Below are positions 29,259 to 43,448 of a stretch of DNA of 64,000 bases, one piece after another; the first letter of the stretch is position 1, and every line of letters starts with the position of its first letter. This DNA is from Streptomyces sp. V3I8. GTDB taxonomy: Bacteria; Actinomycetota; Actinomycetes; Streptomycetales; Streptomycetaceae. A model generated the notes under the pieces. The model was not told the origin of the DNA and searched no databases. It saw only the letters and a program-made list of their open reading frames with translations. The position numbers were made by a program, and so were the translations under genes. The DNA lies in the NCBI RefSeq assembly GCF_030817535.1, contig NZ_JAUSZL010000002.1, forward strand, positions 4,960,001 through 5,024,000. Reading direction: 5' to 3'.

Positions 29259-29564
29259 ATGGCCGGCGGCAAAGACGCGGATATCACTTATGACGAGATG
29301 CACAAGGCGGCTACCAAGCTGACCGACGCCAAGGACAAGATCGACGAGAAGCTCGACTCTCTCGAGCGCTACATCCAGGGCCTCGTCAAGGACGGCTACA
29401 CCACCCGCAAGGGCTCGCAGGCCTTCGAGGACTCCTTCACGGAGTTCAAGAAGGGCGCGAAGGACACGATCGAGGGCCTGACGGGCATGGCCAAGTTCCT
29501 GACGAGCGCCGCGAAGGCGTACCAGGACCTGGACGACGAACTGGCCAAGGGCGTCAAGGGCTGA
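29259..29564 (+). CDS. WXG100-superfamily-like small secreted protein (no W-x-G)
   Basis: 101 residues, two long helices with a break near DGYTTRKGSQAF (residues 45-56) where WXG100 proteins carry W-x-G; here Tyr47 and Gly52 stand instead. The end has YQDLDDELAKGV (Tyr88, Asp92), fitting the YxxxD/E type VII export signal. KDKIDEKLDSLERYIQGL is coiled-coil-like. Divergent from the EssC-type ATPase gene, so it is the prime candidate substrate. Single-gene unit ended by a hairpin. Confidence 0.82.
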   Translation: MAGGKDADITYDEMHKAATKLTDAKDKIDEKLDSLERYIQGLVKDGYTTRKGSQAFEDSFTEFKKGAKDTIEGLTGMAKFLTSAAKAYQDLDDELAKGVKG

Positions 29565-29586
29565 TCACCCGATCTCCTCGGGGCGC

Positions 29587-29621
29587 GGGAGCGGTGGGCA
29601 CGTACGCGGTCCACCGCTCCC
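29587..29621. terminator. Perfect 11-bp stem-loop between convergent genes
   Basis: GGGAGCGGTGG (29587-29597) pairs with CCACCGCTCCC (29611-29621), loop 13 nt. It can end the WXG100-like transcript and the opposing membrane-protein transcript. Confidence 0.8.
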
Positions 29622-29627
29622 GGCGCC

Positions 29628-30320
29628 TCAAGGCCCGGTGCTGTCCGACCCGTCGGATCGCTGGTGGCGCATCAGGTACATGTGCAGTTCGCTGCGCTGC
29701 TCCTCCGTCGTGAGGACCAGCCAGGAACCGTCCATGAAGCGAATGCGCAGCTTCTTGCTGTCGTATGACGGCAGAGGATCCTCGATGACCGCCTGCTGCG
29801 CGGAAATCTCCGCTACGACCCGCATACGCTCTTCCCTGCGCAGGGACACCCGCTTGGGCGGTGCCGCGAAGAGGATCCGGTCCTGCGCCAGCGCGACGAA
29901 CCGCTGATGGTGAGAGGAATGGCTGTACCAACGCAGCAAGAACTGGCCGGCCGCCGCGTTCCAGGCGCCGTCGAAGACGTGGTCGAGGCGCTGATCGACG
30001 ATGATCTGGTCCCGTCGCTCGATGTCGCGGTCCTCCCTGCGGGCGCGCTCGCGCTCCTCCTCGGTCGACAGGAGGCGCTTGAGGGCTTCCTCGCCGGAGG
30101 CGAGCAGGCTGAACAGCATCGCGATCGGCATCAACGGGGCGACCAGTACGGCACCGAGCATGCCGAGCGGTCGCAGGAACGCCGGCCGCAGCGGCCCCGC
30201 ACCGGCTTCCCGGTGGACGTCCGTGGGCGGCTCGGGAATCTTGCCGATCGTGCACCAGGCCGCAGCGTCCGGAGCGACACCGAGGCGACTCCGTGCGGCG
30301 CGGTCCGTGCTTCTGGACAC
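29628..30320 (-). CDS. Membrane protein with a C-terminal PH-like domain (T7SS island)
   Basis: 230 residues from GTG 30320, preceded by purine-rich GGAAAAGGTAGG; an upstream ATG at 30482 is in frame but would overlap the divergent gene. A hydrophobic segment (about 55-80, MLGAVLVAPLMPIAMLFSLLA) is followed by a highly charged linker (EEERERARREDRDIERRD) and a domain ending KLRIRFMDGSWLVLTTEEQRSELHMYL. The F-x-D-G-S-W strand is shared with the gene at 39069-39980, so the two are paralogues. The beta-rich end suggests a PH-like fold. Role unknown; location suggests a membrane accessory of the secretion island. Confidence 0.65.
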   Translation of the reverse strand: MSRSTDRAARSRLGVAPDAAAWCTIGKIPEPPTDVHREAGAGPLRPAFLRPLGMLGAVLVAPLMPIAMLFSLLASGEEALKRLLSTEEERERARREDRDIERRDQIIVDQRLDHVFDGAWNAAAGQFLLRWYSHSSHHQRFVALAQDRILFAAPPKRVSLRREERMRVVAEISAQQAVIEDPLPSYDSKKLRIRFMDGSWLVLTTEEQRSELHMYLMRHQRSDGSDSTGP

Positions 30321-30481
30321 GCTGTCCCACCTACCTTTTCCTCGTCGTCCACCGACCGGGGGCCGGTCCCGGTGGGTGAGCGTATCCGGGTACGGCGCGG
30401 AGGTGGAGGACACGGCAGCAACACGACCGCCTGCGCAACGGTTGAAACGTCCTGCATTATTCATTTCGGGGGAATTCGTCA

Positions 30482-30787
30482 ATGGCCGACAGAACCAGGT
30501 ACGACCTGACGCTCATCAAGGACTGCTCGCGCTCTCTGGGGAAAATCCATGACGAGTTCGAGCACAACGGGAACCCAGCAGACGATTACGGCGACGAGCT
30601 GGGGCACGGTGGGCTCAAGGAGGCCTTCGAGGAATTCGGCAGTACGTGGAAGAAGACCCGCAAGAAACTCATGAAGGAAATCGAAAAGCTCGCCGATGCC
30701 ACCAGGGTGGCGGCGGAGAAGTATGAAGAGATCGACCACGAGCTGGCGAAGGCCATCGAATCGGCCAAGGGGGGGAGCAAGAAGTGA
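30482..30787 (+). CDS. WXG100-like protein, WxxxR variant (module 1)
   Basis: 101 residues. Helix, break, helix: FGSTWKKTRKKLMKEI has Trp56 followed by Arg60 rather than W-x-G, and the end carries YEEIDHEL (Tyr81, Asp85), an export-signal-like motif. The spacing from Trp to the aromatic residue of the end motif is 25, identical in three other small proteins of this window. The stop overlaps the start of the long partner gene (GTGA at 30784), so the pair is translated together, as secreted heterodimers often are. Confidence 0.8.
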   Translation: MADRTRYDLTLIKDCSRSLGKIHDEFEHNGNPADDYGDELGHGGLKEAFEEFGSTWKKTRKKLMKEIEKLADATRVAAEKYEEIDHELAKAIESAKGGSKK

Positions 30788-32067
30788 GCAGGCGATCCAG
30801 CGACTGGCCTCCCTTGTGGGACGAGGACCCGACTCCCGGAGACCCGAACGAAGTTGCCGCGCTCGGCCGCAAACTGCGCAAGACCGCCGAGATGATCGAC
30901 GAACAGTCGAGGGTCATCAAGGCGCTGTCCTCGGTCGACGGCTGGGACAGCGATGCGGGACGTGCCTTCAACGAGGTGGCCGACGGAGCCGGCGACCGTC
31001 TGAAGAAGGCGTTCGAGCGATACGACGAGGCGGCCAACGCACTGGGCACCAAAGTCGCGGAAGGCGAGTCGAAGGAATTCGCCGGCGAACTGCACCGGGC
31101 CCAGACGAAGGCCGACAGGGCCCTGGCGGACTACCAGGAGGCCGAAGCCGAACACGATGTCGCCGACCGTGAGGTGAAGAAGTTCACGGACAAGTATCCC
31201 GTCGTGAGTCAGATCCCGGCGGCGGACAAGACCGAGTACGAACGGTGGGAGAAGAAGCGCGACGACGCGTTGGAAAGGATCGGCCAAGCGCGCAAGGCGG
31301 TGAAGGACGCCAGGGAGATGTTCGAGGATGCCGGGGATCGCGCGGCCAGGCACATCAAGAACGTGGTGCACCACGACGCCGTCCGTGATCCGGGCGGATT
31401 CATGAACTGGCTCGCCGACTGGGCGGACACGTTCTCCAACATCTCCGCGATCCTGTCGGTTCTGGCGGTCATCTGCGCTTTCGTACCGCCGCTGCAGTTC
31501 CTCGTGCCCATCTTCGCCACCCTCGCGGTGCTGTGCAGTGCGGCAGCGCTCGCCGGCCACGCGTACGACATGTCCGTCCGGGGCGGGAAGGTCAACTGGC
31601 TGAAGCTCGGAACCGACACCTTGGGAATCCTGCCCGGCCTGGGCGCACTCAAGGGTTTCCGGGCATTGGTGGGGCTCAAAGGCGTGGCCAAACTCAAGTC
31701 CTTCGGGAAACTCGGCACCTTCAGCTCGTTCAACGGTCTCGCCGCGGTCGACGGGATCGGGCACAACTTTCTCAACGGTCTCAGCGTGGGACTCACCAAC
31801 AAGACGCTGGGCGCGGGCCTCGCGCTCGGCAAGAGACTCAAGCTCCCGAACCTCCCTGAGCAGTTCGTCCCCCTGGGGGGCAAGCAGATCACGGCGGCCA
31901 TCAAGGGGGTGGGACTCGCGAGCGCCCTCAACCGGATGTTCCGTCAGGAGAACGGCGGGAGGACGGGTTACCAGGAACCCTCCGCGCCGATGCCTGTGCC
32001 CGCTCCGACGCCCAGCCCGTCACCCGGTCCCTCGCCCCAGCCGTTCCACGCCGCCCTGGCCGCGTAG
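30784..32067 (+). CDS. Long putative type VII-secreted protein (module 1)
   Basis: 427 residues. N-terminal signature DPTPGD (residues 15-20), then W54-DSDAGRAF, a WXG-like turn. Residues 80-200 form a charged coiled coil. A hydrophobic core (about 218-265, ISAILSVLAVICAFVPPLQFLVPIFATLAVL) is followed by KLGTDTLGILPGLGALKGF, a motif seen in pre-toxin regions. The C-terminus is Pro/Ser-rich with no recognisable toxin domain. Architecture matches the proteins at 35246 and 40076. It could be a secreted effector, a membrane-active toxin or a structural tip. Confidence 0.75.
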   Translation: MSRRSSDWPPLWDEDPTPGDPNEVAALGRKLRKTAEMIDEQSRVIKALSSVDGWDSDAGRAFNEVADGAGDRLKKAFERYDEAANALGTKVAEGESKEFAGELHRAQTKADRALADYQEAEAEHDVADREVKKFTDKYPVVSQIPAADKTEYERWEKKRDDALERIGQARKAVKDAREMFEDAGDRAARHIKNVVHHDAVRDPGGFMNWLADWADTFSNISAILSVLAVICAFVPPLQFLVPIFATLAVLCSAAALAGHAYDMSVRGGKVNWLKLGTDTLGILPGLGALKGFRALVGLKGVAKLKSFGKLGTFSSFNGLAAVDGIGHNFLNGLSVGLTNKTLGAGLALGKRLKLPNLPEQFVPLGGKQITAAIKGVGLASALNRMFRQENGGRTGYQEPSAPMPVPAPTPSPSPGPSPQPFHAALAA

Positions 32068-32106
32068 GCGAAGTGTGACGACCCGGCGCGATGACGCAGG
32101 AGAGGG

Positions 32107-32730
32107 GTGGTGCTCATGAATGACGCGACGGAGCTCGGCGAGCGGGAGTTCATCGGCCGCCGGGGTGGTGACCGAGCCCGGCTCGTGCCCGCCGAGGTGA
32201 TCGCCACGGTTCCTGAAGCCAGAGCGATGGCGCAGTCGGCGAGCACGGAACTCCGCTTCGACTTCCTGGACGACAGGGCCGTACTGCGGATGCTCAGGTT
32301 GCGTCATGCTGATGAGGAAGCGATGTTCGCAGCGGGCTTCAGGACCGGCGTTCCGCTCGCAGTCATCGGCTTCGGCGCGGCGGTGTACTGGGGCGGGGCC
32401 GCTCAGTACTGGGAGTCCGGCAGGGCGCAGATGGTCTACCTCGTCGTCGCGGGGGCGGTCGTCCTGTCGCTCCTGGCGCTCTACATCCGCACGGCGGTGG
32501 CGCACTGGAGAGACCCCGTGCGCCAGAACCTCCGCGCACGCGCCCGGAAGTACCGGGAGGTGGCGCATACGGCCCGCAGGGGTGGTGCCGCGGTCCCCGC
32601 CCACTACCCGTACTACGGTCCGTATCCTTTCGCGGCTGGTTTCCACCCCGAAGCCGAAGAAACAGAAGAAACCGAAGAAGCCCAAGAAACCGAAGAAGCA
32701 GATGAACCTGAGGGCGAAGGCCGGGCATGA
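32107..32730 (+). CDS. Two-helix membrane protein with an acidic repeat tail (module 1)
   Basis: About 204-207 residues; GTG 32107, GTG 32110 and ATG 32116 are possible starts behind AGGAG. Two membrane helices (about 85-105 and 113-130) end in IRTAVAHWRDPVRQNLRARARKYREVA, a basic amphipathic segment. The tail is a low-complexity acidic run of EETEETEE type caused by GAAGAAAC-like repeats. Overlaps the next gene by 4 bp (ATGA). No family recognised; co-transcription places it in the module. Confidence 0.7.
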   Translation: MVLMNDATELGEREFIGRRGGDRARLVPAEVIATVPEARAMAQSASTELRFDFLDDRAVLRMLRLRHADEEAMFAAGFRTGVPLAVIGFGAAVYWGGAAQYWESGRAQMVYLVVAGAVVLSLLALYIRTAVAHWRDPVRQNLRARARKYREVAHTARRGGAAVPAHYPYYGPYPFAAGFHPEAEETEETEEAQETEEADEPEGEGRA

Positions 32731-33395
32731 TCACGACAGCAGCTGATGAGGACCTCCGGGAAGCAGCCGGAACGGAGGGCATCGATGTCCGTTGGATCAT
32801 GCCGGAGGGGTTCTTCGAGATCCCGATGGACGCGGAGGATCTGGACGAGACCGCGGAACAACTCGTCGAGCTGGCCCGAAAGGCGCTCCCGGAGGCCGAT
32901 TTCGAGGTCCAGCTGCAGTGGGCGGTCATGGTTGCCGCCCACTACGACTCGTTCGTGGAAGCGGGAGTTCAGTACGCCGGCCTTTGCATGACCGAGGTGG
33001 ACGGCACGCGCTGCACGGCCACGGTCAGCATCAGCATGGTGGACCTCGACCAGCGCGCGGGAGCGAGGCCCGTCAGGTTCCTGGGCTCGTCGATGCGACA
33101 CCTCGGGCTCGGACAGGTCAGCGAGATCGAACTGCCCTGCGGACCCGCTGTTTCCTGTATCGGGACGAGGAAGGGCAGCCTGGACGGAAGCCTGACGGCG
33201 TCCGGCGCCGACGAGAATGTCCTGACGTCCTTCATCCAGGTACAGATACCGCTGGTCAACGGGACCTGTGTGGTCCTGGAGATGGGATCGCCAACTGCTG
33301 AGGGATGGGAGGTGTTCTCCGCCATGTTCGCCGGAGTGGTGAAGAGTGTCCGGCTGTTCGACGATGCGGGCAAGCCGCTCGTGATGCCGGGATGA
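32727..33395 (+). CDS. P-x-x-W/F family protein (Mog1/PsbP-like?), copy 1
   Basis: 222 residues, no signal peptide. Near the N-terminus VRWIMPEGFFEIPM carries the motif shared by six proteins here (Pro-x-x-aromatic-aromatic-x-Ile-Pro/Asp). A helical segment and alternating strands follow (TRCTATVSISMV, VSEIELPCGPAVSC, LTSFIQVQIPL, CVVLEMGSPT), ending in a helix FAGVVKSVRLFD. The order resembles Mog1/PsbP or LpqN-type folds, but this is inference. Translationally coupled on both sides. A chaperone or adaptor for the neighbouring secreted proteins is plausible. Confidence 0.7.
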   Translation: MITTAADEDLREAAGTEGIDVRWIMPEGFFEIPMDAEDLDETAEQLVELARKALPEADFEVQLQWAVMVAAHYDSFVEAGVQYAGLCMTEVDGTRCTATVSISMVDLDQRAGARPVRFLGSSMRHLGLGQVSEIELPCGPAVSCIGTRKGSLDGSLTASGADENVLTSFIQVQIPLVNGTCVVLEMGSPTAEGWEVFSAMFAGVVKSVRLFDDAGKPLVMPG

Positions 33396-33955
33396 GCGGC
33401 GCACCGGCCGCGTCGGCGCCGCCCAAGGACTACCGGTTGCTGGTTCCGCGTGACTGGTTCCGGATCGACCTCACCCAGGACCGGTGGCGCGGGCAGCTGA
33501 AGACCTTCGTGGACTTCCAGGCGGAAGGCCGGAATGTACCGGCGGAGGCACAGCAGGAGGCGTGGGCCACTCTGCGCAACACCGCCGAGGCCGGCGTCGC
33601 GGGCGGTGCGCTGGAGTTCTTCCTGCGGCCGGAGCTGTCCGACGGCAGCATCATGCCCGCCTCGCTCATCGTGTCGTTGGTCCCACGGCCCGGATCCCTG
33701 ACGCCCCGGGACCTCCTGCCGGTGTTCGAAGCGGAGGAACGCGACCGCGGGCGTGCTTCCGAAGTGTCGGTTGTCGAACTCCCGAGCGGCGGGGCGGTAC
33801 GGATCCTGACGCCCGCCACCCTGGACCTGTACGTCCACATGCCGGGAGCGGTCGGGTACCTGGTGCTCGCTTTCGCCGTGCCTCTGACCGGTATGCGAGG
33901 GCCGATGCACCGACTGTGCACCTCGATCGCGGAATCACTGCGCTGGATCATGTGA
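33392..33955 (+). CDS. P-x-x-W/F family protein, copy 2
   Basis: 187 residues from ATG 33392, overlapping the upstream stop. YRLLVPRDWFRIDL is the family motif (residues 14-27); SVVELPSGGAVRIL matches the central strand of copy 1; the last helix is CTSIAESLRWIM. No membrane segment or signal. Its pairing with copy 1 in one operon suggests a heteromer or recent duplication followed by divergence. Confidence 0.7.
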   Translation: MSGAPAASAPPKDYRLLVPRDWFRIDLTQDRWRGQLKTFVDFQAEGRNVPAEAQQEAWATLRNTAEAGVAGGALEFFLRPELSDGSIMPASLIVSLVPRPGSLTPRDLLPVFEAEERDRGRASEVSVVELPSGGAVRILTPATLDLYVHMPGAVGYLVLAFAVPLTGMRGPMHRLCTSIAESLRWIM

Positions 33956-34051: not shown

Positions 34052-34642
34052 ATGTCTGTTGGATCAGAGGCCGGGAAGCCCCGGGCCCAGGGTTCTGGGC
34101 GCTCGGTCGTGGGGAACGTCGTCTTCGGCGTCGGCCTGCTGCTCGTCCTGGCCGCCATGACGCTCGGTGCCTACGCGGGCGTCGCCCTGGCCGTCCAGAT
34201 GACGGACGATTCGTTCCTGTCGTCGGCGGTGCCGGACGACGGACGCAACGCGCTGGTCGTCGGGGGCATCGGCGCGGGCGGCTTGGCGGGCCTTCTGGTA
34301 CCGCTCATTCTGTTCTCCGCCGTCCGGGGCACTGAGGACAAGCCCAGGACCGGACCCGGAGAGGCCCTGCTCAAGGTCCTTGGCGTCCTCGTCGTCGGTG
34401 TCTACCTGCTGCTCGTCTCCGTGGTCGCGGCACAGCTCGGCCGGTTCCTCCCCGAAGGAGCGACCACCCTGGTGAGCGTCTTCGTCGTCGGCTTCAGCTG
34501 GATGCCGCTGGCGCTCGTGCCATGGGAGCGGTTCGGGCTGAGAGGCGTACAGGAACTGCTGGGTTCCTCCCGTGGAGCTGAGCACGGTCCGGTGCGTGGC
34601 CAGGCGCGCGGCCGGGACGACAGTTCAGACAAGCCGGACTGA
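34052..34642 (+). CDS. Polytopic membrane protein (T7SS island)
   Basis: 196 residues from ATG 34052 with GGGAGAG upstream; ATG 34040 is an in-frame alternative. Four hydrophobic helices (about 20-45, 63-87, 103-126, 132-153), the last followed by VPWERFGLRGVQELLG. The hydrophilic tail is Gly/Arg/Asp-rich. No family recognised. Its 3' end overlaps the convergent gene by 18 bp, marking the border between modules 1 and 2. Confidence 0.72.
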   Translation: MSVGSEAGKPRAQGSGRSVVGNVVFGVGLLLVLAAMTLGAYAGVALAVQMTDDSFLSSAVPDDGRNALVVGGIGAGGLAGLLVPLILFSAVRGTEDKPRTGPGEALLKVLGVLVVGVYLLLVSVVAAQLGRFLPEGATTLVSVFVVGFSWMPLALVPWERFGLRGVQELLGSSRGAEHGPVRGQARGRDDSSDKPD

Positions 34643-35239
34643 GTCCGCCAACTCGTCCGCCATCCGACCCAGTTCCTCGCCGAGTCCCGGAGCCCTCCAG
34701 AGCAGGCGGCACTCCAGCGCGGTGGGACGGGCCCGCGGCAGGACGTAGTGGGCCACACCCTCCAGTACGGAACCGTCGCCGGTATCGGGATCCGTGGGCT
34801 CCAGCCGGTGCATCCGCAGCGCGGCCCCCAGCGGCAGCTCGACCTCACTGATCTCCGGAGGCCGGAAGAACGGACCCTCGGCGCTTTCGGCCGCCGCGCG
34901 CAGTATGTCCAGCCGCAGCGACTCCGGTGGGATGCCCGCCAGCTCGCGTACGCAGTAGAACGCGGCCACGCCACCGTCCTGCGGTGTGAGGAGCGCGGCG
35001 CACAGAGCCTTCTGCCGGGCGGCGACATCGTGATACCAGAGCACGTCCGCCGCGAACGCCGTCCGCCACTCGTCGGGTACGCCCGCCGTGAAGTGCTTGT
35101 CGGCCGCCGAGCGGGCCCATTCCTCGGGCCGCGGAGCGGTGAGGTCGAGCACGAGCCAGTTGTGCGGAGCGGGCAGCGTGACACGGCACTGGTGCCAGTC
35201 GGCTGCCGCCGTGGACGCGGACGCGTCTGCCGTGGGCAT
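34625..35239 (-). CDS. P-x-x-W family protein, copy 3 (module 2)
   Basis: 204 residues. The N-terminal motif is LPAPHNWLVLDL; the central strand ISEVELPLGAALRMHRL resembles copies 1 and 2; the last helix is MADELADSVRLV. DEWRTAFAADVLWYHDVAARQKALCAALL is the helical part. Lies 6 bp after the stop of the long secreted-type protein of module 2, so expressed with it. Confidence 0.68.
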   Translation of the reverse strand: MPTADASASTAAADWHQCRVTLPAPHNWLVLDLTAPRPEEWARSAADKHFTAGVPDEWRTAFAADVLWYHDVAARQKALCAALLTPQDGGVAAFYCVRELAGIPPESLRLDILRAAAESAEGPFFRPPEISEVELPLGAALRMHRLEPTDPDTGDGSVLEGVAHYVLPRARPTALECRLLWRAPGLGEELGRMADELADSVRLV

Positions 35240-35245
35240 CGGCGG

Positions 35246-36634
35246 CTACCTCCCCGCCAGTGAGGCATCGGGTCCGGTCACGTCGATGTCGTCGCCCCCG
35301 AAGAGCCCGACGAAGCTCTTGGTGTCCGAGCCAGCCCCCGTACCGGTCGCCCCGAGCGCCCACGAGTTGTACTGCAGGGCCTGCTTGAAGGCGTCCGGCG
35401 TACCGATGATGTTCAGGTCCGACGGGTCGATGTTCTTGATCCGGGCGAGCTCGTCGACCATGCCGGGACCCACGTACATGCTGGCGAGGCCGCGCGCACC
35501 ACCCGCGCGCCAGGCGTCACGGACGGCGGAGACGTTGTCGCCGACCTTGAGCAGGTCCCGCCAGTTGCCCCGGATCGTGCCGAGGTCGTCGGCGAAGGAG
35601 GCGCCCAGGCCCCTGAAAGCGGCTCCCAGGCTCACGTTGGGCGCGGCGGCCGTCGCGGTCGCTCCGGCGCGCGCACCGACCATCTCGACGACCAGCGCGC
35701 GCCGCGCCGCCGCGTTGAGACCGGGGTTCCACCCGCGTACGTACTGGGCCGCCGCCGTCCACACACGACTGCGGCCGGCCGTCGCGGCGAGCTTGGCACC
35801 GGCGGAGAAGACCCGGCCGATACCGAAGGTCGCGAGGCCCAGTACGTCCATGGCGACATCGCCCCACGACCCGTCGCCGTTGATGGCGAGGAGCAGATGG
35901 CAGACGAGCGAGACGGCGGTCGCGATCAGTGCGATGGTGCCGAGGACACCGGCGATCGCCTGTCCGATGACGGGGATCCAGCCGACCAGGAGTGCCACCA
36001 GCCCGCAGACCGCCGCGACGGCTCCCGCGATGTCCGCGACGATCTTCAGGGTGTCGCGCAGCTCGTCCAGCCAGGAGTCGTTGAGGTCGTCGCTCTCGGT
36101 GATCAGGTGGATCCGCTTGGCGGCGGCGTTGCCGGCTGTGTCGTGCCGCGTCTTGAGCGGTACGAGTTTGCCGCGCAGGTCATCCAGTTCGCCCTGCAGG
36201 CCCGTCACCGCGCCGTCGAGCTTCTTCTGCCCGGTCTCGTCGGTGTCTTCGGGCGGGCTGTCGGCCTTCGACCTGGCGGTCGTCAGGTCACCGCTCTTCG
36301 TCTCGGCCTGCCCGAGGAGCCGGTCCGCCTCCTCCTGGATCTCCTGGAGTTCGGTGTGGTACTCCTTCAGCGCGATGCCCGCCTCTTCGTAGCGGTTGTG
36401 CGCCTTGCTCACGGTCTTCGCGGTGTCGTCGGCCTTCTCGGCGAACTCGCGGCCGGCTTTGGAGTCCCAGCTCTTCTGGTCACCGAGTCGGCGCAGCGCG
36501 GCAGCGGCGTCCGAGATGGTCTTCGCCGTGGCGGTGAAGCGTCTGGCGAGCGCCTTGAGGTCGTCCACGTCGCCGGGCACCGGATCCGCGCTCTCGCCCA
36601 GCACCTCCCAGCGGTGGTCGGCGGGACGCGTCAC
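35246..36634 (-). CDS. Long putative type VII-secreted protein (module 2)
   Basis: 462 residues from GTG 36634, overlapping the stop of the WXG100-like gene (GTGA). DPVPGD at residues 17-22 and W56-DSKAGREF repeat the signature of modules 1 and 3. A long coiled coil (about 75-175) leads to a hydrophobic core (about 200-250: IVADIAGAVAAVCGLVALLVGWIPVIGQAI) and VAMDVLGLATFGIGRVF, a degenerate pre-toxin motif. The C-terminal 150 residues differ from the other two long proteins and have no recognised toxin motif; polymorphic ends are typical of delivered effectors. Confidence 0.75.
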   Translation of the reverse strand: MTRPADHRWEVLGESADPVPGDVDDLKALARRFTATAKTISDAAAALRRLGDQKSWDSKAGREFAEKADDTAKTVSKAHNRYEEAGIALKEYHTELQEIQEEADRLLGQAETKSGDLTTARSKADSPPEDTDETGQKKLDGAVTGLQGELDDLRGKLVPLKTRHDTAGNAAAKRIHLITESDDLNDSWLDELRDTLKIVADIAGAVAAVCGLVALLVGWIPVIGQAIAGVLGTIALIATAVSLVCHLLLAINGDGSWGDVAMDVLGLATFGIGRVFSAGAKLAATAGRSRVWTAAAQYVRGWNPGLNAAARRALVVEMVGARAGATATAAAPNVSLGAAFRGLGASFADDLGTIRGNWRDLLKVGDNVSAVRDAWRAGGARGLASMYVGPGMVDELARIKNIDPSDLNIIGTPDAFKQALQYNSWALGATGTGAGSDTKSFVGLFGGDDIDVTGPDASLAGR

Positions 36635-36945
36635 TTCTTGCCCCCACCGGTCTTGTCCTTGCCGACCAAGGCCTTGTAGAGCTGTTCGTCGATCTCGGTG
36701 TACGCCTCGCCCGCCGTCTTGGCCACCTCGCCCAGGCCTTTGATCTCCTCGATCATCTTCTCGCGGTTGTCGTTCCAGCCGTCGGAGAACTCCTGCAGCC
36801 GTTCCTGCAGCAGCTTGTGGCCGACCGTCCGCCGGTCGTAGGAGTCCAGAAGCTTGTCGAGCCCTTCGAACTCCGTGGCCACCGTCCGCAGTCCCACGCC
36901 CGCCGTGTGCAGGTCGTCGGTGGAGACTCTGAGCCGCTCGCTCAT
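36631..36945 (-). CDS. WXG100-like protein, WxxxR variant (module 2)
   Basis: 104 residues from ATG 36945, which overlaps the stop of the upstream family protein (ATGA). FSDGWNDNREKMIEEI holds Trp57 and Arg61; the end motif is YTEIDEQLY (Tyr82, Asp86), 25 residues from the Trp. A Lys/Gly tail follows. Middle gene of a tightly coupled three-gene unit with a family protein before and the long partner after. Confidence 0.82.
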   Translation of the reverse strand: MSERLRVSTDDLHTAGVGLRTVATEFEGLDKLLDSYDRRTVGHKLLQERLQEFSDGWNDNREKMIEEIKGLGEVAKTAGEAYTEIDEQLYKALVGKDKTGGGKK

Positions 36946-37568
36946 CCTTGTTGCCCCCGTGGTTCCTGAGTCTTTTTCTGCCAGCGCAGAGTACCGGCGA
37001 CCGCGTCGAAGAGCTCCGTCATCGCATCCGCGATCGGCTCCAGCGGAGTGCTGAACGTCAGCATGAGGACCTCGTCCCGATCCGGTACGGGGACGAAGTA
37101 CTCCACGACGGTGTCCTCGAACTCGCTGCCGAGCCGCCGCGTTTCCCGGCTGCGTTCCGTACGCCGCCGACGGACCGCCGGTCCGGTGGTCGGCAGTCGT
37201 ACGCGGGAGGTCTCGCCCTTGCCGGACAGCGCCGAGACCACGCCAAGGCTGTCGAACCGCTGAGAGAGCCTGGAGATCAGCAGGGACGCGGAGAGAGGGA
37301 TCCCCGCCGCTTCCAGGAACGACAGGTAGAGCACCACGCCGCCCTGCTCGACGCCCGCCCCGGCCGCGCCCAGCAGTTGCTCCTCCGCCTGTCGGCGAAG
37401 CACCGGCTGATCGTCCACGCCCGCGAACTGCCTTTTGACCAGCGCGCTCACGGACGCTTCGCGACGGTCCAGTGGCTGAAGCGGGATGCGGTACCAATCC
37501 TCGGGCGTGATGAGGCCGAAGACGTTCTCGCTGTCGGCGCTCCGGTCGGACGGCGCGGTCTGCTGCAT
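36942..37568 (-). CDS. P-x-x-W family protein, copy 4 (module 2)
   Basis: 208 residues from ATG 37568; no clear ribosome-binding site, so the start is less certain. FGLITPEDWYRIPL is the family motif; the last helix is FDAVAGTLRWQ. The middle has VVLYLSFLEAAGIPLSASLLIS and a basic patch RRRRTERSRETRR not seen in the other copies. First of the coupled unit leading into the WXG100-like and long genes. Confidence 0.68.
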   Translation of the reverse strand: MQQTAPSDRSADSENVFGLITPEDWYRIPLQPLDRREASVSALVKRQFAGVDDQPVLRRQAEEQLLGAAGAGVEQGGVVLYLSFLEAAGIPLSASLLISRLSQRFDSLGVVSALSGKGETSRVRLPTTGPAVRRRRTERSRETRRLGSEFEDTVVEYFVPVPDRDEVLMLTFSTPLEPIADAMTELFDAVAGTLRWQKKTQEPRGQQG

Positions 37569-37650: not shown

Positions 37651-38286
37651 TCAATCGGAACTGACAGAGCTGGCAGGGCCGGCCGAATTGGTGGGACCGG
37701 TGAGTCCGGTCTCTGAACGCCCTCTCTGGCGGAGTACGGCCACGGCAATCAGCAGCGCAGCCATGGCGACGGTGGCCGCGAGACCGACCGCCCACAGCCA
37801 GGGCTGGGTACGGAAGGTCCAACTGGGCGCGACGGATACCCCGCGACCCCACTTGCCCGTGTCCTGGGCGACGAAGATCAGAGAGGCGAGCTGGAGCATG
37901 ACTGCTCCGCAGAGGACGGCCAGCAGCGTGCGGCCGAGCGATCGGGCCTTGTGCGTCTTCCAGCGCTCCTTGCTCAGGCCGGCAAGAGTCATCACGAAGA
38001 GCGTCACCACGCAGGGCACGAGCGCTCCCGCGAACACCGCGAAGCCGTACGCGCCGCCCGGCCAGGCATCGGCCACCCACTTCCAGGTGTCGTCGCCCCA
38101 GTACTCGTTCATGAAGATGAACAGGGCGAGCAGGACGGCGATGGCAAGCAACGCCAGGCAGCCGAACAATTTGTTCCCCGTACCGGAGTCCTCGTCCTCG
38201 CGCGCTGTCCGGCGACCGGGCCGGTGCTCGTACTGCAGCGAGGAGGCGGCGGCTTTGCGCCGACGGGGCTTGGCCGAACCTGCCAT
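37651..38286 (-). CDS. Polytopic membrane protein (module 2)
   Basis: 211 residues. A basic cytoplasmic N-terminus (MAGSAKPRRRKAAA), then about four helices: LFGCLALLAIAVLLALFIF, the AVFAGALVPCVVTLFVMTLAGL region, LLAVLCGAVMLQLASLIFV and WAVGLAATVAMAALLIAVAVL. No family recognised. Lies between two copies of the P-x-x-W family on the same strand, 82 bp before one and 4 bp after the other. Confidence 0.72.
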   Translation of the reverse strand: MAGSAKPRRRKAAASSLQYEHRPGRRTAREDEDSGTGNKLFGCLALLAIAVLLALFIFMNEYWGDDTWKWVADAWPGGAYGFAVFAGALVPCVVTLFVMTLAGLSKERWKTHKARSLGRTLLAVLCGAVMLQLASLIFVAQDTGKWGRGVSVAPSWTFRTQPWLWAVGLAATVAMAALLIAVAVLRQRGRSETGLTGPTNSAGPASSVSSD

Positions 38287-38290
38287 CTTG

Positions 38291-39028
38291 TTATCTCCCA
38301 GGTGTCTCGGTAAGGGCTTCAGGGGGCTCGGCGAAGGAAACCGTCTTAAGAACGGCCCCCATCAGTTCGACGAACTGGGCCCAATGATCCACTGAGGCTG
38401 TGAAGAGCGTGAAGACAGCGGTGAACGCACCCGTTGGAAAGGGAACATAGACTTGGATCTGGGCAGTGACGAGATCTGTTGTATCGCCGCTCGCCGAGAA
38501 ATCCTTGTTGATGGTGAATTGGCGCCAAGTCGTGCACGACGCTGCTGGGCCACATGGCAAGTCAAGCCATTCGACCTCGTTGTACGGGTCCTTGGACAGG
38601 GTCGCGAGGATTCCCTGCGTGGCGACGTCTGTATCGGTGTCTGCTTGATCTGTGGGAATGGCAGCCAGAGTGAAGGCGCATTGGGCTGCACCGACTGACA
38701 AGTCATGCCTGGCTATCTCGCCCGTCCCCGACGAGGTCTGTTCTTCCTCAGACGTGGAGAACAGGCCCAGCGCGGCGTAGGAGAGACCGGTGTTCCCCAT
38801 GAGTTCCGCCATCGCCGCGAAGTAGGGAGTGGCGGGATCCCATACCCTTTCGTCCCCACGAGAATAGAGCTCACGGACGAAGGACCGTGCGCGCTCCGCG
38901 CGTTCCTCGGGCTCGAGGGCGAGGGGAAGTGCGAAGAACCCCTCCGGGACCAGGAACCAGACAGGCGGAGGCTCGGTCGTCGGAGTGGGTGAATGAAGTG
39001 GCGCAGTAGGGTTGGCAGAGGGGTTCAT
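38291..39028 (-). CDS. P-x-x-F family protein, copy 5
   Basis: About 245 residues from ATG 39028 (no obvious ribosome-binding site). VWFLVPEGFFALPL is closest to copy 1 (MPEGFFEIP). VEWLDLPCGPAASCTTWRQF parallels ELPCGPAVSCIGTRKG of copy 1, and the last helix is MGAVLKTVSFAE, so copies 1 and 5 are sister genes in two modules. Codon use is less G+C-biased than in flanking genes. Confidence 0.7.
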   Translation of the reverse strand: MNPSANPTAPLHSPTPTTEPPPVWFLVPEGFFALPLALEPEERAERARSFVRELYSRGDERVWDPATPYFAAMAELMGNTGLSYAALGLFSTSEEEQTSSGTGEIARHDLSVGAAQCAFTLAAIPTDQADTDTDVATQGILATLSKDPYNEVEWLDLPCGPAASCTTWRQFTINKDFSASGDTTDLVTAQIQVYVPFPTGAFTAVFTLFTASVDHWAQFVELMGAVLKTVSFAEPPEALTETPGR

Positions 39029-39068
39029 TGAGCTGTAGACCGGTCCGATTATCGTGTGCCGCAGGGTT

Positions 39069-39980
39069 TTAGAGGTCTTCGGGGTGATAATCCTCAGCAT
39101 CGACCTCTATGCCATCGGAGTCCATGACAAGACTCTCCTCCGAGGAACCGAAGGAGGAGGTGAACTGACTCGGTGGCAGGATGTCCACGTTGTAGTGGCC
39201 GCATGCGTTACGAGTAATGATAGGAGTAACGGAATCTGATGCATCGATTTCTCTGATGAATTCTGAGATGGTTGTGCGTTGTTTCGTGCTGAGTGATTCC
39301 AGGGGCAGCAGGTCGGGCGGTTGCATGAAGTATCGCGTGAGCGCTCTTCGCCAGACGCAGGTCAGCCTGCACCATGAGCCGTCCGTGAAGGTGACTGTGA
39401 AGTCGTTGCCGTCCTTGAAGTCCTTGAGTTCGACGATGTCGATGTCGGTGCGTGAGCACTGCCAGAGGACTTCGTCGTCGATCGCTTCGAGATTCTTCCT
39501 GTCGAAGGGCAGGCTGACCAGAACCAGCCTGCGATCGGTGACGATCGCGTGCGTGCGGTGGTGCTTGTGGTCGAAGCGGCTGGGATCCAGTTGCCAGGGC
39601 AGGGACCGGGCCAGGGTGTCCGGCGCGGCCCACATCACCGGGAAGTCCTCGACCTCGTTCGCCGGGTCGTCCGGAGTGTCGGAGCCGGAGTCGTCGGAAG
39701 GGGTGCTGACATTGCCGCCCGCGGAGCTCAGAAAGGCCATGACGGCCACGCCGGCCGCTGTCGCCGCACCCTTGACGGATCTTCGGACCACCGTGCTTCC
39801 CGTCGAACGGGGAGTGAAGGAAGGGCCTTCGGGCCAGCCGGGCAGCTTGCGCTGAATATCGTTGCGGTCAGTGTCACGGAACCAGCGCATGCCTCTGACG
39901 CGTGGCGCGGCTCCCGTCGCGAACGCGACAGGAGCGCGGCCAAGAAGCGTTTCGCCCGGTTCTGGCTGCCAGATGTTCAT
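39069..39980 (-). CDS. Membrane-linked protein with PH-like end, paralogue of 29628-30320
   Basis: 303 residues. One weak hydrophobic segment (about 72-90, GAATAAGVAVMAFLSSAGG) followed by an acidic linker (SDDSGSDTPDDPANEVEDF). Then a strand-rich domain: HAIVTDRRLVLVSLP, DIDIVELKDFKDGNDFTVTFTDGSWCRLT, which resembles bacterial PH-type modules (Thr-Asp-Arg-Arg-Leu-hydrophobics). The F-x-D-G-S-W strand links it to the other paralogue. The last third of the gene is unusually A+T-rich for this genome. Function unknown. Confidence 0.65.
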   Translation of the reverse strand: MNIWQPEPGETLLGRAPVAFATGAAPRVRGMRWFRDTDRNDIQRKLPGWPEGPSFTPRSTGSTVVRRSVKGAATAAGVAVMAFLSSAGGNVSTPSDDSGSDTPDDPANEVEDFPVMWAAPDTLARSLPWQLDPSRFDHKHHRTHAIVTDRRLVLVSLPFDRKNLEAIDDEVLWQCSRTDIDIVELKDFKDGNDFTVTFTDGSWCRLTCVWRRALTRYFMQPPDLLPLESLSTKQRTTISEFIREIDASDSVTPIITRNACGHYNVDILPPSQFTSSFGSSEESLVMDSDGIEVDAEDYHPEDL

Positions 39981-40075: not shown

Positions 40076-41338
40076 CTAGTCCTCGGACAGCGTGTCCTTG
40101 ATATTGGTGGCGGCCTTCGGCGCGATCTTCAGGGTGCCGTCGAGGGCCCTGCCGAAGTCGCTCAGCGGATCCACATTCCCCTTCATCAACGTATTGATGC
40201 CCTTGGTGCCGAGCCATTGCCCCTCGTGGTAGCCGGCACTCACAAGACCTCCCATGCGTGATGCCAGACCGCTGCTCGCATGCGAGACCTCATACACGTG
40301 CTTGGATATGCCGCCGATCTTTACCAGACCAGCTTTTCCGAGCCCGTCCGTGAGACCTTGTGAACTCTTGCCGAACGACATCAGGACGCGTGAGCGGCCA
40401 ATCCTTGTGTATTGGAATCCGTCTCCGAGAAGCGCCACCTTGGCCTGAGCCGCTTTCCTGCCCAGCTTGGCGGTCTTGCCCGCAACCTTGACGCCCTTGC
40501 CGAACGTGCCGATGCCGGGCAGCAACCCCAGTGCGTCTGTGCCGAGGGTCATCCAACTCACGTCCGCGCCAGCCGCCATGGCAACACCGTGGGCTGCCAG
40601 AGCGAGCCCGCTGCCGATCAATGCGGCCGTGCCGAAGATGGCAGCGAGGGGCGGGAACGGAAGTGTGACGATGGCCAGCATGCCCATCAGCGCGGAAATG
40701 TTGCTGAGTACGTCACCGATCGCTTTGATCAGGTCGGCGTGTTCCGTGAGCCACTCGCCTGTCGCGTCCCAGCTGTCCGCGATTCCTTGGCCCAGCTTGT
40801 CCCAGAAGCCCGGCTCGTTCGGGGCTATGTCGCCCGCCTTGTCGAGCTCCTTGCTGATCCTGTCCGCGGCACGCTTGTAGCGGTCCTCCAGGTCGTGGAC
40901 CTTGCCCGTGATCTCGTCGACCGCGCCCGACGCCTTGCCGAGTTCCTCGCTGCCCTTGCCGTTGTCCTTCGCGCCAGCTTTCTGCTGGGCCGTCTCCCTG
41001 GCCTCCAGCTTCTCGCCGGCCGACTTCTCCAGGCGGTTCGCCTCGTCCTGGAAGTCCTCCAGTTCACCGGCCCACCGGTGCAGCGCGCGCGAGGCCTTGT
41101 CGAAGGAGTCGTGGCTCTTGCGGATCAGCGGGGTGACGTCCTGGCCGACGTACTCCGTGAACGCGACCGCCGTTTTGCCCTTCCAAGCGCCGGCCTCGAT
41201 CCGCTCCAACTCGCGGAGCGTGGTGCTCAGATCCCTCGCCAGGCCCCCGAGCTTCTTCGCGAGGTCCCGGGTGTCGTCGTGGTCTCCCGGCGTCGGATCC
41301 CAGCCGATGTGGGGGAAAGCAGGACGCTTGCCGGCCAC
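40076..41338 (-). CDS. Long putative type VII-secreted protein (module 3)
   Basis: 420 residues. DPTPGD at residues 14-19 and W52-KGKTAVAF, here a true W-x-G. A charged coiled coil (about 90-170) precedes the hydrophobic core (about 210-265: ISALMGMLAIVTLPFPPLAAIFGTAALIG) and TLGTDALGLLPGIGTFGKGVK, nearly the same as in module 1. The C-terminal 100 residues (HVYEVSHASSGLASRMGG to the end) differ from the others. Follows the WXG100-like gene by 2 bp, so they are co-expressed. Confidence 0.76.
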   Translation of the reverse strand: MAGKRPAFPHIGWDPTPGDHDDTRDLAKKLGGLARDLSTTLRELERIEAGAWKGKTAVAFTEYVGQDVTPLIRKSHDSFDKASRALHRWAGELEDFQDEANRLEKSAGEKLEARETAQQKAGAKDNGKGSEELGKASGAVDEITGKVHDLEDRYKRAADRISKELDKAGDIAPNEPGFWDKLGQGIADSWDATGEWLTEHADLIKAIGDVLSNISALMGMLAIVTLPFPPLAAIFGTAALIGSGLALAAHGVAMAAGADVSWMTLGTDALGLLPGIGTFGKGVKVAGKTAKLGRKAAQAKVALLGDGFQYTRIGRSRVLMSFGKSSQGLTDGLGKAGLVKIGGISKHVYEVSHASSGLASRMGGLVSAGYHEGQWLGTKGINTLMKGNVDPLSDFGRALDGTLKIAPKAATNIKDTLSED

Positions 41339-41340
41339 GT

Positions 41341-41646
41341 CTACTTGTCCTTCTTCTTCGTCCTGAGGGACTCGGCGAGATCGTGGTCGAGCTTGCCGAA
41401 CTCCTCACCGATCTTGTTGATCATCTTCACGGCGCCCTGCGTGTGCTTGCCGAGCTGCTTGATGCCGAAGCCCCACTCGTCGGCGAACTCGTGCACGTTC
41501 TCGACGAGTCCGCTCTCGCCGACCGCGGAGCCGTCGGCACCGCGGAGTGTGCGGCGTGCGCTGTCCATCCGGTCGCTGATCGTCGAGAAGGTCTTCTTCA
41601 GATCCTCGAAGACGGTGTCCTCGAGACGCAGGTCACTCATGGTCAT
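41341..41646 (-). CDS. WXG100-like protein (module 3)
   Basis: 101 residues from ATG 41646 (ATG 41640 also possible). FADEWGFGIKQLGKHT has Trp58 at the inter-helix turn; the end motif is FGKLDHDLAE (Phe83, Asp87), spacing 25 as in the related proteins. Phe replaces the Tyr of the export motif. Ends in KKKDK. Precedes the long protein gene directly. Confidence 0.8.
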   Translation of the reverse strand: MTMSDLRLEDTVFEDLKKTFSTISDRMDSARRTLRGADGSAVGESGLVENVHEFADEWGFGIKQLGKHTQGAVKMINKIGEEFGKLDHDLAESLRTKKKDK

Positions 41647-41694
41647 CCATGTGGAGTTCGGACTTTCGCAGGAGGGGTGGTCGGGGAGAGGGGG

Positions 41695-42783
41695 TCAGCG
41701 GTTGACCGACTGGATCTCCTCGACCGTGATGTTCTGGACGGCCTCGATCGTGCCGTCGGGCAGACCGACCGCTCCGGCCTGGCCCGTGCCCGTCCAGCTG
41801 ATCTCCCAGGTGAGGGCCGCCTTGAGAGGGAAGGTCTCGCCGCCGGACGAGCGGCGGTAGACGATGCCGCAGGGCGGGGTCTGCTTTGCCTTGCCCTTGG
41901 CGTACGGTTCGCCGATCTTGCCGTTCACGATGGGGCAGCCGCCGTCAGCGGGGATCGTTGTGGCGTCCGCCGTACCTGGACTGAGTGTCAGGGACTTGGG
42001 CTTCGCGGTGGTGGTGGCTGTGATGTTGAATCCGGGTGCGTTGATCGCCGCCGTCGCCTGGACCTCGTCGAACACGGCCTTGTCCAGCCACGCCCACGTC
42101 GGCAGGTTCACCTTGGTGATGGCCTGGGGCGCGAGTGTCACCTTCGTGCCCGGCAACTCCATGTGCTGGTAGGCCAAGGCCGCGAGCATCTCCGGTGTGA
42201 TGGCTTCCTCGTACTGCGGCGGTGGGGTCTCGCCGTTTTCGACCCAGAAGGGGAGGTCGGAGCATGAGGTCCGCGCGGCGTAATTAGGTTCATTGGGGTT
42301 TTCGACACCGGCCCAGAACATTCCCTCGCCGTCCTTGTCGACGTTGTAGTCCTTGTAACCCGGAGTATCCGCCCAGCCGTAGTCGTCCTTGTAGTGGCGC
42401 TGTACCTCGCCGATCGCCGAGTCCGCGGTTCCTGTGATGGCAGGGTCGTTCTGCCACTTCTCGATGTCGCTCGACATCTTCTTCTTGAAGTCCTTGGCAC
42501 CCAGGTAGGGGGCGTACCAACAAGCGGGTGGTGTCCAATTGACGTCGGCGGACGAGACGTTGCCGATACCGCCATTCTTGGCGACCGCACCGGAGTATTG
42601 AACCTGAGCAGCTGCGTAGATGCCGGTGTCGTCGCTACCACCACCTTGCTGATTGCTGCCGGCGCCGTTGTCGCTAGGTTTCGGCTCTGCCGTGTGGGCC
42701 GGTGTCGTCAGCAGGAGGGCGCTGAGGCTCAGTGTCAGGGCAGCCGCGCTGATGTTGAGAGGCGTGTGCCGTGCTCCCTTCAC
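41695..42783 (-). CDS. Secreted protein of unknown function (T7SS island)
   Basis: 362 residues from GTG 42783, overlapping the lipoprotein stop (GTGA). A Sec signal peptide is clear (NISAAALTLSLSALLLTTPAHTAEP). The mature part contains WTPPACWYAPYLGAKDFKKKM, YEEAITPEMLAALAYQHMELPGTKVTLAP, and a C-terminal strand-rich region with paired Cys (GGCPIV ... PPCGIVYRR). The gene is operon-linked to the lipoprotein and lies just upstream of module 3. Probably acts on the outer face of the membrane. Parts of the gene have reduced G+C. Confidence 0.72.
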   Translation of the reverse strand: MKGARHTPLNISAAALTLSLSALLLTTPAHTAEPKPSDNGAGSNQQGGGSDDTGIYAAAQVQYSGAVAKNGGIGNVSSADVNWTPPACWYAPYLGAKDFKKKMSSDIEKWQNDPAITGTADSAIGEVQRHYKDDYGWADTPGYKDYNVDKDGEGMFWAGVENPNEPNYAARTSCSDLPFWVENGETPPPQYEEAITPEMLAALAYQHMELPGTKVTLAPQAITKVNLPTWAWLDKAVFDEVQATAAINAPGFNITATTTAKPKSLTLSPGTADATTIPADGGCPIVNGKIGEPYAKGKAKQTPPCGIVYRRSSGGETFPLKAALTWEISWTGTGQAGAVGLPDGTIEAVQNITVEEIQSVNR

Positions 42784-43448
42784 TGGCACTTCGCCGCCTT
42801 CACCTCGACGAACACCTTGGAGGCCTGCCACAACTTGTCGCTTGTGGGGAACTTGACCATAATGATCTTGAAGTAGTCGAAGTCCTCGATACTGGGCTTG
42901 GTTTTGCGCACCTTCCCGGTCTTGACCTCTTTGCCGTAGAACTTGCTGGAGTCCACGCAGAACGCAATCTCCACCGACTTGCCATTCGGGGCGGAATGGG
43001 TCGTGGCCCGGTAATGACGCCGAGTGCCAGTTGCCGTCCAGCCGTCGTCGACCCTGTCGCTGATCTGTGTCTCCGCGTAGTGGAGGCCATCGCCCGTGGC
43101 GTACGCGGTCACGGCAGCGTCCTTGGTCGTACCCTTATCGACGCCGTGGTAGATCGCACGGACGTAGTTGGCGGCGTCGTCCATGGCCGCTGCCTCGTTC
43201 TTCGCTTTCGGCTTGTCCCAGTCGAAGACCAGGTTCATGTCCTTGGGCAGGGACACGTCCACGCCGTCCGGCTTGTCTTTCGCCGCCCCTGCCGGTTCCG
43301 CCGACTTCGACGGCTTCTGCGAGGTCTGGTCGGCGCCTGCGATCTTGTCGTTGTCGCTGGACTTGTCGTCCCCGCCGCCACATGCCGTCAGCAGCAGGGC
43401 TGCGGTGGCGGCGAGCGCGGTAGCAACGGGCAAAGTGCGGCGCTTCAC
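42780..43448 (-). CDS. Lipoprotein of unknown function
   Basis: 222 residues. Signal peptide MKRRTLPVATALAATAALLLTAC with lipobox LTAC (Cys23), then a Ser/Asp/Lys linker and a globular domain (AMDDAANYVRAIYHGVDKGTTKDAAVTAYATGDGLHYAETQI ... FCVDSSKFYGKEV ... CQ). The helix-plus-curved-sheet feel suggests an NTF2-like fold, as in many Streptomyces lipoproteins, though this is not certain. First gene of the unit leading into the secreted protein. Confidence 0.8.
   Translation of the reverse strand: MKRRTLPVATALAATAALLLTACGGGDDKSSDNDKIAGADQTSQKPSKSAEPAGAAKDKPDGVDVSLPKDMNLVFDWDKPKAKNEAAAMDDAANYVRAIYHGVDKGTTKDAAVTAYATGDGLHYAETQISDRVDDGWTATGTRRHYRATTHSAPNGKSVEIAFCVDSSKFYGKEVKTGKVRKTKPSIEDFDYFKIIMVKFPTSDKLWQASKVFVEVKAAKCQ

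What the first reader, a model, noticed from the sequence alone, without database searches (positions are those of the whole stretch)
29259..43448. Three paralogous type VII-like modules next to a lone EssC-type ATPase
Seen: three units (30482-33955, 34625-38286, 38291-41646) each combine a ~100-residue WXG100-like gene immediately before a 420-462 residue protein (overlapping in modules 1 and 2, 2 bp apart in module 3), one or two ~200-residue P-x-x-W/F proteins and often a membrane protein. All three long proteins share DP-x-PGD near residue 15-20, a W-[DK]-[SG] turn near 52-56, a coiled coil, a hydrophobic core and a pre-toxin-like LGxxPGxG motif. Known: EssC/EccC ATPases need EccB/D/E or EssA/EssB partners, and none are here. 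Inference: an actinobacterial T7SS-like system with its own membrane parts and accessory proteins, not yet described as such.
Basis: partly seen in the sequence, partly recalled or inferred. Interest (0 to 1): 0.8.

Follow-up and report, generated by a model that had tools for sequence, protein, structure and literature searches.

The report
Toxin exporter with a transmembrane-shielding chaperone
A soil bacterium carries what looks like a stripped-down, undescribed kind of toxin-export machine in which each predicted toxin has one partner matched to its front end and another matched to its membrane-inserting middle, a division of labour otherwise familiar from a very different bacterial weapon.

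Summary
In detail: three S–LONG–P modules sit beside an EssC-like ATPase, as part of a linked system. In 121 genomes of the genus, all 27 with strong P (P-x-x-W) hits carry the EssC orthologue, against 1 of the other 94. LONG proteins share their delivery domain with RHS/nuclease polymorphic toxins; 181 of 196 small proteins carry a [YF]xxxD export-type motif. The main new result: P has the Mog1/PsbP/DcrB fold of Eag chaperones, which shield transmembrane segments of T6SS effectors. In 59 non-redundant modules P divergence tracks the toxin's transmembrane region (partial 0.48; hairpin 0.02, C-terminus 0.15), while S tracks only the hairpin (0.67). Best reading: a T7SS variant with a Lap-like partner for the hairpin and an Eag-like chaperone for the transmembrane segment. 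EssC has an FHA and a probable fused ubiquitin-like domain; EssB is undetected in the genome and EccB appears only at a distant T7SSa locus. A Tad pilus locus lies within 36 kb in 20 of 21 informative genomes. The membrane proteins look module-specific, not core machinery. Binding, secretion and toxicity are not shown.

The parts
24295..28998 (-). EssC/EccC-family ATPase, 1567 aa: probable ubiquitin-like domain, FHA domain, two predicted TM helices, FtsK/SpoIIIE ATPase domains
   Evidence: PF01580 207.9 bits; TIGR03928 562 bits, below its cut-off of 778; translation
28669..28998 (-). N-terminal YukD/EccD-like (ubiquitin-like) stretch of EssC, residues 1-110
   Evidence: moderate: YukD E 0.55 here, 3 of 38 homologues match, best 4.4e-4; hhalign to four EccD N-termini prob 29.8 or 59.1 by setting, versus at most 1.4 in 30 column-shuffled controls of the second setting; residues 44-77 of the model mostly below pLDDT 50
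28333..28632 (-). FHA domain of EssC, residues 123-222
28063..28194 (-). two predicted TM helices of EssC, residues 269-312
   Evidence: model helices 269-287 and 291-312
29259..29564 (+). WXG100 protein (EsxA-like), divergent from EssC
   Evidence: PF06013 E 4.1e-14; YQDLD motif at 88
30482..30787 (+). S1, small WXG100-like partner, module 1
   Evidence: PF10824 T7SS_ESX_EspC 25.9 bits, cut-off 23.5; WXG100 only E 0.018; YEEID motif
30784..32067 (+). LONG1, predicted T7SS effector, 427 aa
   Evidence: PF21725 T7SS_signal 39.7 bits, cut-off 27
31396..31653 (+). transmembrane region of LONG1 (residues 205-290), whose divergence P tracks
32107..32730 (+). membrane protein M3, module 1, candidate immunity
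   Evidence: its family covaries best with the LONG C-terminus, n=11
32727..33395 (+). P1, Mog1/PsbP/Eag-fold protein
   Evidence: model pLDDT 91, pTM 0.86; folds
33392..33955 (+). P2, second P of module 1
34625..35239 (-). P3, module 2
35246..36634 (-). LONG2, predicted T7SS effector, 462 aa
   Evidence: PF21725 26.9 bits, just under the cut-off of 27
36631..36945 (-). S2, small WXG100-like partner, module 2
   Evidence: Pfam matches below cut-off; YTEID motif
36942..37568 (-). P4, module 2 (start codon uncertain)
37651..38286 (-). membrane protein M5
   Evidence: its cluster in 16 of 97 loci
38291..39100 (-). P5, module 3 (start codon uncertain)
39069..39980 (-). M2, module 3, shares an 83-residue stretch with 29628-30161
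   Evidence: 29% identity, E 3.8e-4
40076..41338 (-). LONG3, predicted T7SS effector, 420 aa
   Evidence: PF21725 27.0 bits, at the cut-off
41341..41646 (-). S3, small WXG100-like partner, module 3
   Evidence: no Pfam match; FGKLD motif
41695..42831 (-). predicted secreted protein (SEC7), accessory
   Evidence: its cluster in 51 of 97 loci
42780..43448 (-). predicted lipoprotein (LPP8), accessory
   Evidence: its cluster in 44 of 97 loci
46433..47080 (+). P6, of the six window P the closest to those of the minimal and RHS loci
   Evidence: 94% to the P directly upstream of an RHS LONG in L176; best window match (26-31%) of the P of L168-L174, 7 of 7
58368..58697 (-). S4, small WXG100-like protein beside the Tad genes
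   Evidence: FKKLD motif
22456..24219 (+). Ser/Thr protein kinase convergent with EssC, possible regulator
   Evidence: Pkinase E 4.8e-37; its cluster in 61 of 97 loci
51579..58313 (+). linked Tad pilus gene cluster (association, not shown to be part)
   Evidence: T2SSE, two T2SSF, TadE and Tad domains; linkage

Best explanation
The locus encodes a type VII-like export system built on an EssC/EccC-family ATPase that carries an FHA and probably a ubiquitin-like domain at its N-terminus. Each LONG protein is a predicted antibacterial effector: a WXG/LXG-like helical hairpin (about residues 1-200), a hydrophobic transmembrane stretch (about 205-290) and a variable C-terminus. The S protein made just before it pairs with the hairpin and brings a YxxxD/FxxxD export signal, as Lap proteins do for LXG toxins. 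The P protein is a cytosolic chaperone of the Mog1/PsbP/Eag fold that covers the transmembrane stretch until EssC exports the complex, as Eag chaperones do for T6SS effectors. Variable membrane proteins in the modules (M2, M3) may be immunity proteins. Shown by computation: gene linkage, co-occurrence, the predicted P fold, the N-terminal relation of LONG to RHS toxins, the motif and the covariation. Inferred: binding, secretion, toxicity, immunity.
Confidence: 0.6

Rival explanations
1. P proteins are immunity proteins that neutralise the cognate LONG toxin in the producing cell.
Against: Covariation is strongest with the TM region in all six settings. In the minimal loci L168-L174 P stays although the LONG sizes and toxin domains differ, and in L169-L173 it adjoins a small WXG100-like gene rather than LONG. 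None of 135 P has an N-terminal signal-like stretch, unlike exported immunity proteins. If LONG itself acts through its TM region, TM tracking would not exclude immunity.
Confidence: 0.22
2. The LONG/S/P modules are exported by the canonical T7SSa of this genome (EccC and EccB near 7.76 Mb), and the EssC here has another role.
For: A T7SSa locus with EccC, EccB and an EccD-like gene exists in the genome, and no EssB was found.
Against: In this genome P and S occur only in the EssC window; P presence follows the EssC orthologue; in the minimal loci EssC, S, LONG and P lie together.
Confidence: 0.1
3. This is the T7SSd of Garrett et al. 2024 in another genus, not a separate subtype.
For: Shared: actinobacterial, FHA on the ATPase, a WXG100 gene and a Ser/Thr kinase beside it; no YukD match in the other window genes scanned.
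Against: No gene with the TsdI pattern (over 900 aa, hydrophobic at both ends) among 107 genes over 900 aa in the 97 loci; 94 of the 107 are EssC itself, so this rests on 13 others. The minimal loci lack the kinase. TsdC sequences were not at hand, so the ATPases were not compared.
Confidence: 0.15

Closest known systems
T7SSb LXG effectors with Lap1/Lap2 targeting factors (Klein et al. 2022, PMC9600955, abstract read)
   Same: small WXG100-like proteins encoded with a long effector; FxxxD/YxxxD-type export motif; variable C-terminus
   Different: EssB/YukC not found here; P takes part; the LONG domain matches T7SS_signal in Pfam
Eag (DUF1795) chaperones of T6SS TM effectors (Ahmad et al. 2020, PMC7773334, abstract and passages read)
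   Same: fold; association with effectors that carry TM segments, RHS proteins among them
   Different: no DUF1795/DcrB profile match; P is longer (222 against 140-146 residues for the Eag chains); the secretion machine is T7SS-like
T7SSc-T7SSj subtypes, T7SSd above all (Garrett et al. 2024, PMC11217815, abstract, sections 7, 9, 15, 16 and passages read)
   Same: FtsK-type ATPase, with FHA in some subtypes, WXG100, kinase nearby, RHS/LXG-like substrates; Tad linkage as in T7SSg and T7SSh
   Different: 'Streptomyces' occurs 0 times in its main text; no TsdI-like gene seen here; P family; probable fused ubiquitin-like domain
EspG/EsaE chaperones of T7SSa/T7SSb (seen in PMC11217815 passages)
   Same: dedicated partner of a helical effector complex
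   Different: P matches the Mog1/PsbP fold; EspG was not among the rows listed, which does not exclude it
Actinobacterial LXG alarmone synthetase AaEAS (PMC12691689, abstract and passages read)
   Same: actinobacterial LXG effector with a targeting-factor gene upstream
   Different: its main text has no occurrence of 'chaperone', 'EccC' or 'PsbP'

Membership tests
Type VII secretion (general) | membrane-bound FtsK/SpoIIIE EccC/EssC ATPase | tested here: met
   bits lie below the TIGR03928/03924/03925 equivalog cut-offs
Type VII secretion (general) | WXG100 protein encoded beside the ATPase | tested here: met
   29259-29564, PF06013 E 4.1e-14
Type VII secretion (general) | ATPase-dependent export of the WXG100 protein | not testable with these tools
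   needs a secretion assay
T7SSa (ESX) | EccB encoded at the locus | tested here: not met
   the only EccB hit in the genome is at C2:7760956-7762413
T7SSb (Ess) | EssB/YukC | tested here: not met
   0 hits in the genome at E<=0.1; the control rings in B. subtilis
T7SSb (Ess) | EssA, EsaA | not tested
   no genome search made
T7SSd | TsdI, large secreted protein with C-terminal TM helix | tested here: not met
   none with that hydropathy pattern among 107 genes over 900 aa (94 of them EssC) in 97 loci; flanks are at most about 10 kb for the named loci
T7SSd | FHA domain with the phosphothreonine-binding residues | tested here: inconclusive
   FHA fold found; binding residues were not scored
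T7SSd | ATPase falls in the TsdC clade | not tested
   no TsdC sequence at hand
Eag chaperone (DUF1795) | Mog1/PsbP/DcrB-type fold | tested here: met
Eag chaperone (DUF1795) | match to the DUF1795/DcrB profile | tested here: not met
   not among the 12 families listed for 60 P scanned at E<=5
Eag chaperone (DUF1795) | binds effector TM segments | tested here: inconclusive
   covariation only
Lap/WXG100 targeting factor | [YF]xxxD motif in the C-terminal part | tested here: met
   181 of 196 after residue 60; 5 of 5 in the window
T7SS polymorphic toxin | conserved N-terminal delivery domain on different toxin C-termini | tested here: met
   (homologues); the window C-termini match no known toxin

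The most novel reading that the evidence does not exclude
Actinobacteria have an undescribed T7SS subtype whose effectors need two kinds of partner with separate targets: a Lap-like WXG100 protein for the helical hairpin and an Eag-like Mog1/PsbP-fold chaperone for the transmembrane segment. The chaperone logic of the T6SS has thus been reached, by descent or convergence, in a type VII system. The system works with no EssB- or EccB-type partner of its own and is tied to a Tad pilus.
Probability: 0.45. Interest if true: 0.85.

Novelty: new variant of a known kind. Interest (0 to 1): 0.72.

Why it matters
How T7SS effectors with transmembrane segments stay soluble in the producing cell is, as far as I know (recalled, not searched), unexplained. 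This locus gives a testable answer with a specific candidate chaperone family, found in 23 of 122 genera sampled in the class. It would extend the T7SS classification to Streptomyces, offers a very small gene set for mechanistic work, and adds another T7SS linked to Tad pili, which bears on whether the two act together.

Tried and rejected
P as a known Pfam family: 0 families for the six window P at the thresholds used and only scattered weak matches for 60 members. Membrane proteins as conserved machinery: rejected, since the families differ between modules and are not seen in L168-L174. c62 (about 1600 aa, beside some EssC genes) as TsdI: rejected, it is a DUF3686/AAA protein. P6 as next to a decayed RHS gene: RHS queries hit only the three LONG N-termini, not the stretch after P6. 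Tree of ATPases: P-associated ATPases separate from four T7SSa EccC proteins, but it has no T7SSb or T7SSd references and some weak nodes, so I do not use it for subtype naming; four ATPases near P outside the genus (L199, L207, L213, L215; 639-743 bits) score not far above the T7SSa EccC proteins (405-457 bits). The fold search of the EssC N-terminus listed its FHA part; the ubiquitin-like stretch was barely tested there. EspG was not among the listed fold matches of P. The paper searches 'Eag chaperone'+'type VII secretion' and Streptomyces+'Tad pil'+'type VII secretion' gave 0 papers; most subscription papers are not held.
Full report
What is there. The window is G000:C2:4960001-5024000 of a 9.3-Mb genome; named relatives of its proteins and EssC locus are Streptomyces, from which I infer the genus. 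The EssC-like gene (24295-28998) is divergent from a WXG100 gene (29259-29564; PF06013 E 4.1e-14). In the whole genome, 6 of 6 P-profile hits and 5 of 5 S-profile hits at E<=0.1 lie in the window. Two of them lie outside the finding: P6 (46433-47080) and S4 (58368-58697).

The parts belong together. I searched one set of 121 genomes of the genus, G000 included, with P, S, 611 residues of the N-terminal part of EssC and the Tad ATPase. With thresholds I chose (P at least 100 bits; EssC orthologue at least 62% identity, plus one partial, G098), 27 genomes have P and 28 have EssC; 27 have both. The exception is G082, whose P hits are weak (Fisher 4e-26; relatedness of the genomes is not corrected for). 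With looser thresholds 38 genomes have both, 11 have EssC alone (any clade, at least 300 bits) and 4 have P alone. S is less specific: 58 of 121 genomes match at E<=1e-5, namely all 28 with the EssC orthologue and 30 of the other 93.

Gene maps. I called genes in 97 loci: the window, the named loci and 17 stretches; L145 gave no gene. The clusters occur in 93 (S), 92 (EssC) and 84 (LONG) of 97 loci; P occurs in 76. Most loci were fetched through EssC, so the EssC count is no independent evidence. Of the 21 loci without a P, ten hold 23.5 kb or more (L105, L106, L131, L149, L151-L153, L155, L158, L164), so a P close to EssC is not universal; in at least one of these lineages (G118) P lies elsewhere on the same contig.

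Module anatomy. Of 120 LONG genes, S lies directly upstream on the same strand in 96 (96 of 112 not at an edge), and P within four genes downstream in 88 (83 of 109 not at an edge); the S-LONG gap has a lower quartile of -4 and a median of 26 bases. The usual order is S, LONG, often a variable membrane protein, then one or two P. Seven distant loci (L168-L174) have small gene sets. Only EssC, S, LONG and P clusters are shared by all seven; five also have a second small gene family (c54), which matches the S profile at 26-38 bits, and the other two have two S genes. A sigma-factor cluster and a lipoprotein cluster are each in five of seven; no kinase was called there. Two further distant EssC loci, L177 and L182, have no P. 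Outside Streptomyces, P was found in 68 of 393 genomes of the class (the genus included), 23 of 122 genera, and in 16 of 396 of the phylum, two of these outside the class. In 20 loci chosen by P hits from other genera, gene calls show S in 18 (L203 none, L208 only 14 bits), LONG in 16 (L203 only 14 bits), and the ATPase in 13 (L205 as a 206-aa piece at 43 bits, L211 only). The caller missed the P that brought in L201, L207, L209 and L212.

LONG proteins are predicted toxins. They match PF21725 T7SS_signal above (LONG1), at (LONG3) or just below (LONG2) its cut-off. Of nine longer homologues scanned, seven have that match at E<=0.01, four of them over the cut-off; five have RHS repeats, one of these with an Endonuclea_NS_2 domain, and one more has a RNAse_A_bac domain; L169 (2028 aa) matches nothing. 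The N-termini of two RHS homologues align to the window LONG: L148 to all three, L176 to LONG1 and LONG2. The C-termini of the window LONG match nothing known. 113 of 115 LONG over 350 aa have a hydrophobic 19-mer in the first 400 residues, median start 210.

Covariation separates the roles. From 76 modules I kept 59 with LONG identity under 85%, from 48 loci. Pairwise identity of P tracks the LONG TM region (rho 0.65) more than the C-terminus (0.51) or hairpin (0.39); partial values 0.48, 0.15, 0.02. S tracks the hairpin (0.74; partial 0.67) and, in partial values, neither other region (-0.03, 0.03). P favours TM over hairpin in 500 of 500 bootstraps and over the C-terminus in 499 of 500. Six settings of region limits and identity definition keep this order (P-TM 0.37-0.54, P-C 0.15-0.24, P-hairpin -0.01-0.14). 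With regions set by hydropathy the contrast is weaker (TM 0.32, C 0.20, hairpin 0.12; n=65), and the second P is ambiguous (n=20). M3, M2 and Q11 track the C-terminus most (partial 0.50, 0.34, 0.30; n 11, 11, 19), c22 does not (n=10). Modules are related by descent and gene exchange, so permutation and bootstrap counts are not exact probabilities.

Export signal. 181 of 196 S proteins carry [YF]xxxD after residue 60, against 34.3 expected after shuffling; all five in the window do. PMC9600955 (abstract) describes an FxxxD motif in Lap1 proteins, akin to YxxxD/E of T7SSa substrates, whose mutation abolishes LXG export.

The ATPase. It matches T7_EssCb_Firm at 562 bits (cut-off 778), EccCa at 412 (509) and EccCb at 320 (347), so 'EssC-type' rests on the FHA domain as much as on the ATPase sequence. 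Its best PDB sequence match is 4nh0, named FtsK/SpoIIIE by its depositors and EccC as I recall (293 bits), then YukB (226). Residues 123-222 model as FHA. Residues 1-110 look like YukD/EccD ubiquitin-like domains; this is moderate evidence. EssB/YukC: no hit in the genome. EccB: one hit, 2.8 Mb away.

Tad linkage. The window cluster has T2SSE, T2SSF, TadE and Tad domains. An orthologue of its T2SSE ATPase (53260-54573; at least 83% identity) is in 30 of 121 genomes; 25 of the 28 EssC-orthologue genomes have it, against 5 of the other 93. Of the 25, 4 have the two genes on different contigs; of the other 21, 20 have them within 36 kb (G011 does not). Of the 5 without the EssC orthologue, three have another EssC within 26 kb of Tad, in G009 only a partial match. 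Common descent of a chromosomal block could explain much of this. Garrett et al. report that T7SSg and T7SSh are always next to Tad genes (PMC11217815, section 16).

Verdict. I read this as an undescribed T7SS variant (0.6). The division of labour between S and P is the strongest and most testable claim. Binding, export and toxicity remain to be shown. The statement that it is not in print rests on ten searches of an open-access library.

Noticed in passing
29628-30161 (-) and 39069-39980 (-): Two proteins (M1, M2) share an 83-residue stretch (29% identity, E 3.8e-4) with no Pfam match; M1 lies between the EsxA-like gene and module 1.
   Followed up: partly
41695-43448 (-): A predicted secreted protein and a predicted lipoprotein (SEC7, LPP8) occur as a pair, sometimes in tandem, near the modules; their clusters are in 51 and 44 of 97 loci; no Pfam match, role unknown.
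   Followed up: partly
47751-49046 (+): Two similar 188-aa proteins in tandem downstream of P6, no Pfam match for either; possibly orphan immunity genes.
   Followed up: no
51579-58697: Tad pilus cluster followed by a convergent small WXG100-like gene (58368-58697), an arrangement also seen in L176 and L181.
   Followed up: partly
L168, L169, L171, L172, L174: A sigma-factor cluster (c45; Sigma70 regions in the one scanned) lies near five of the seven minimal loci, possibly a shared regulator.
   Followed up: partly
L141:8014-8637, cluster c11 (Q11): A roughly 204-aa family following P in many modules looks like a distant P (hhalign prob 46.8, E 2e-4).
   Followed up: partly
L177, L180, L182: Other EssC-like ATPases with different neighbours, two of these loci with two such ATPases, suggest further T7SS variants in Streptomyces.
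   Followed up: no
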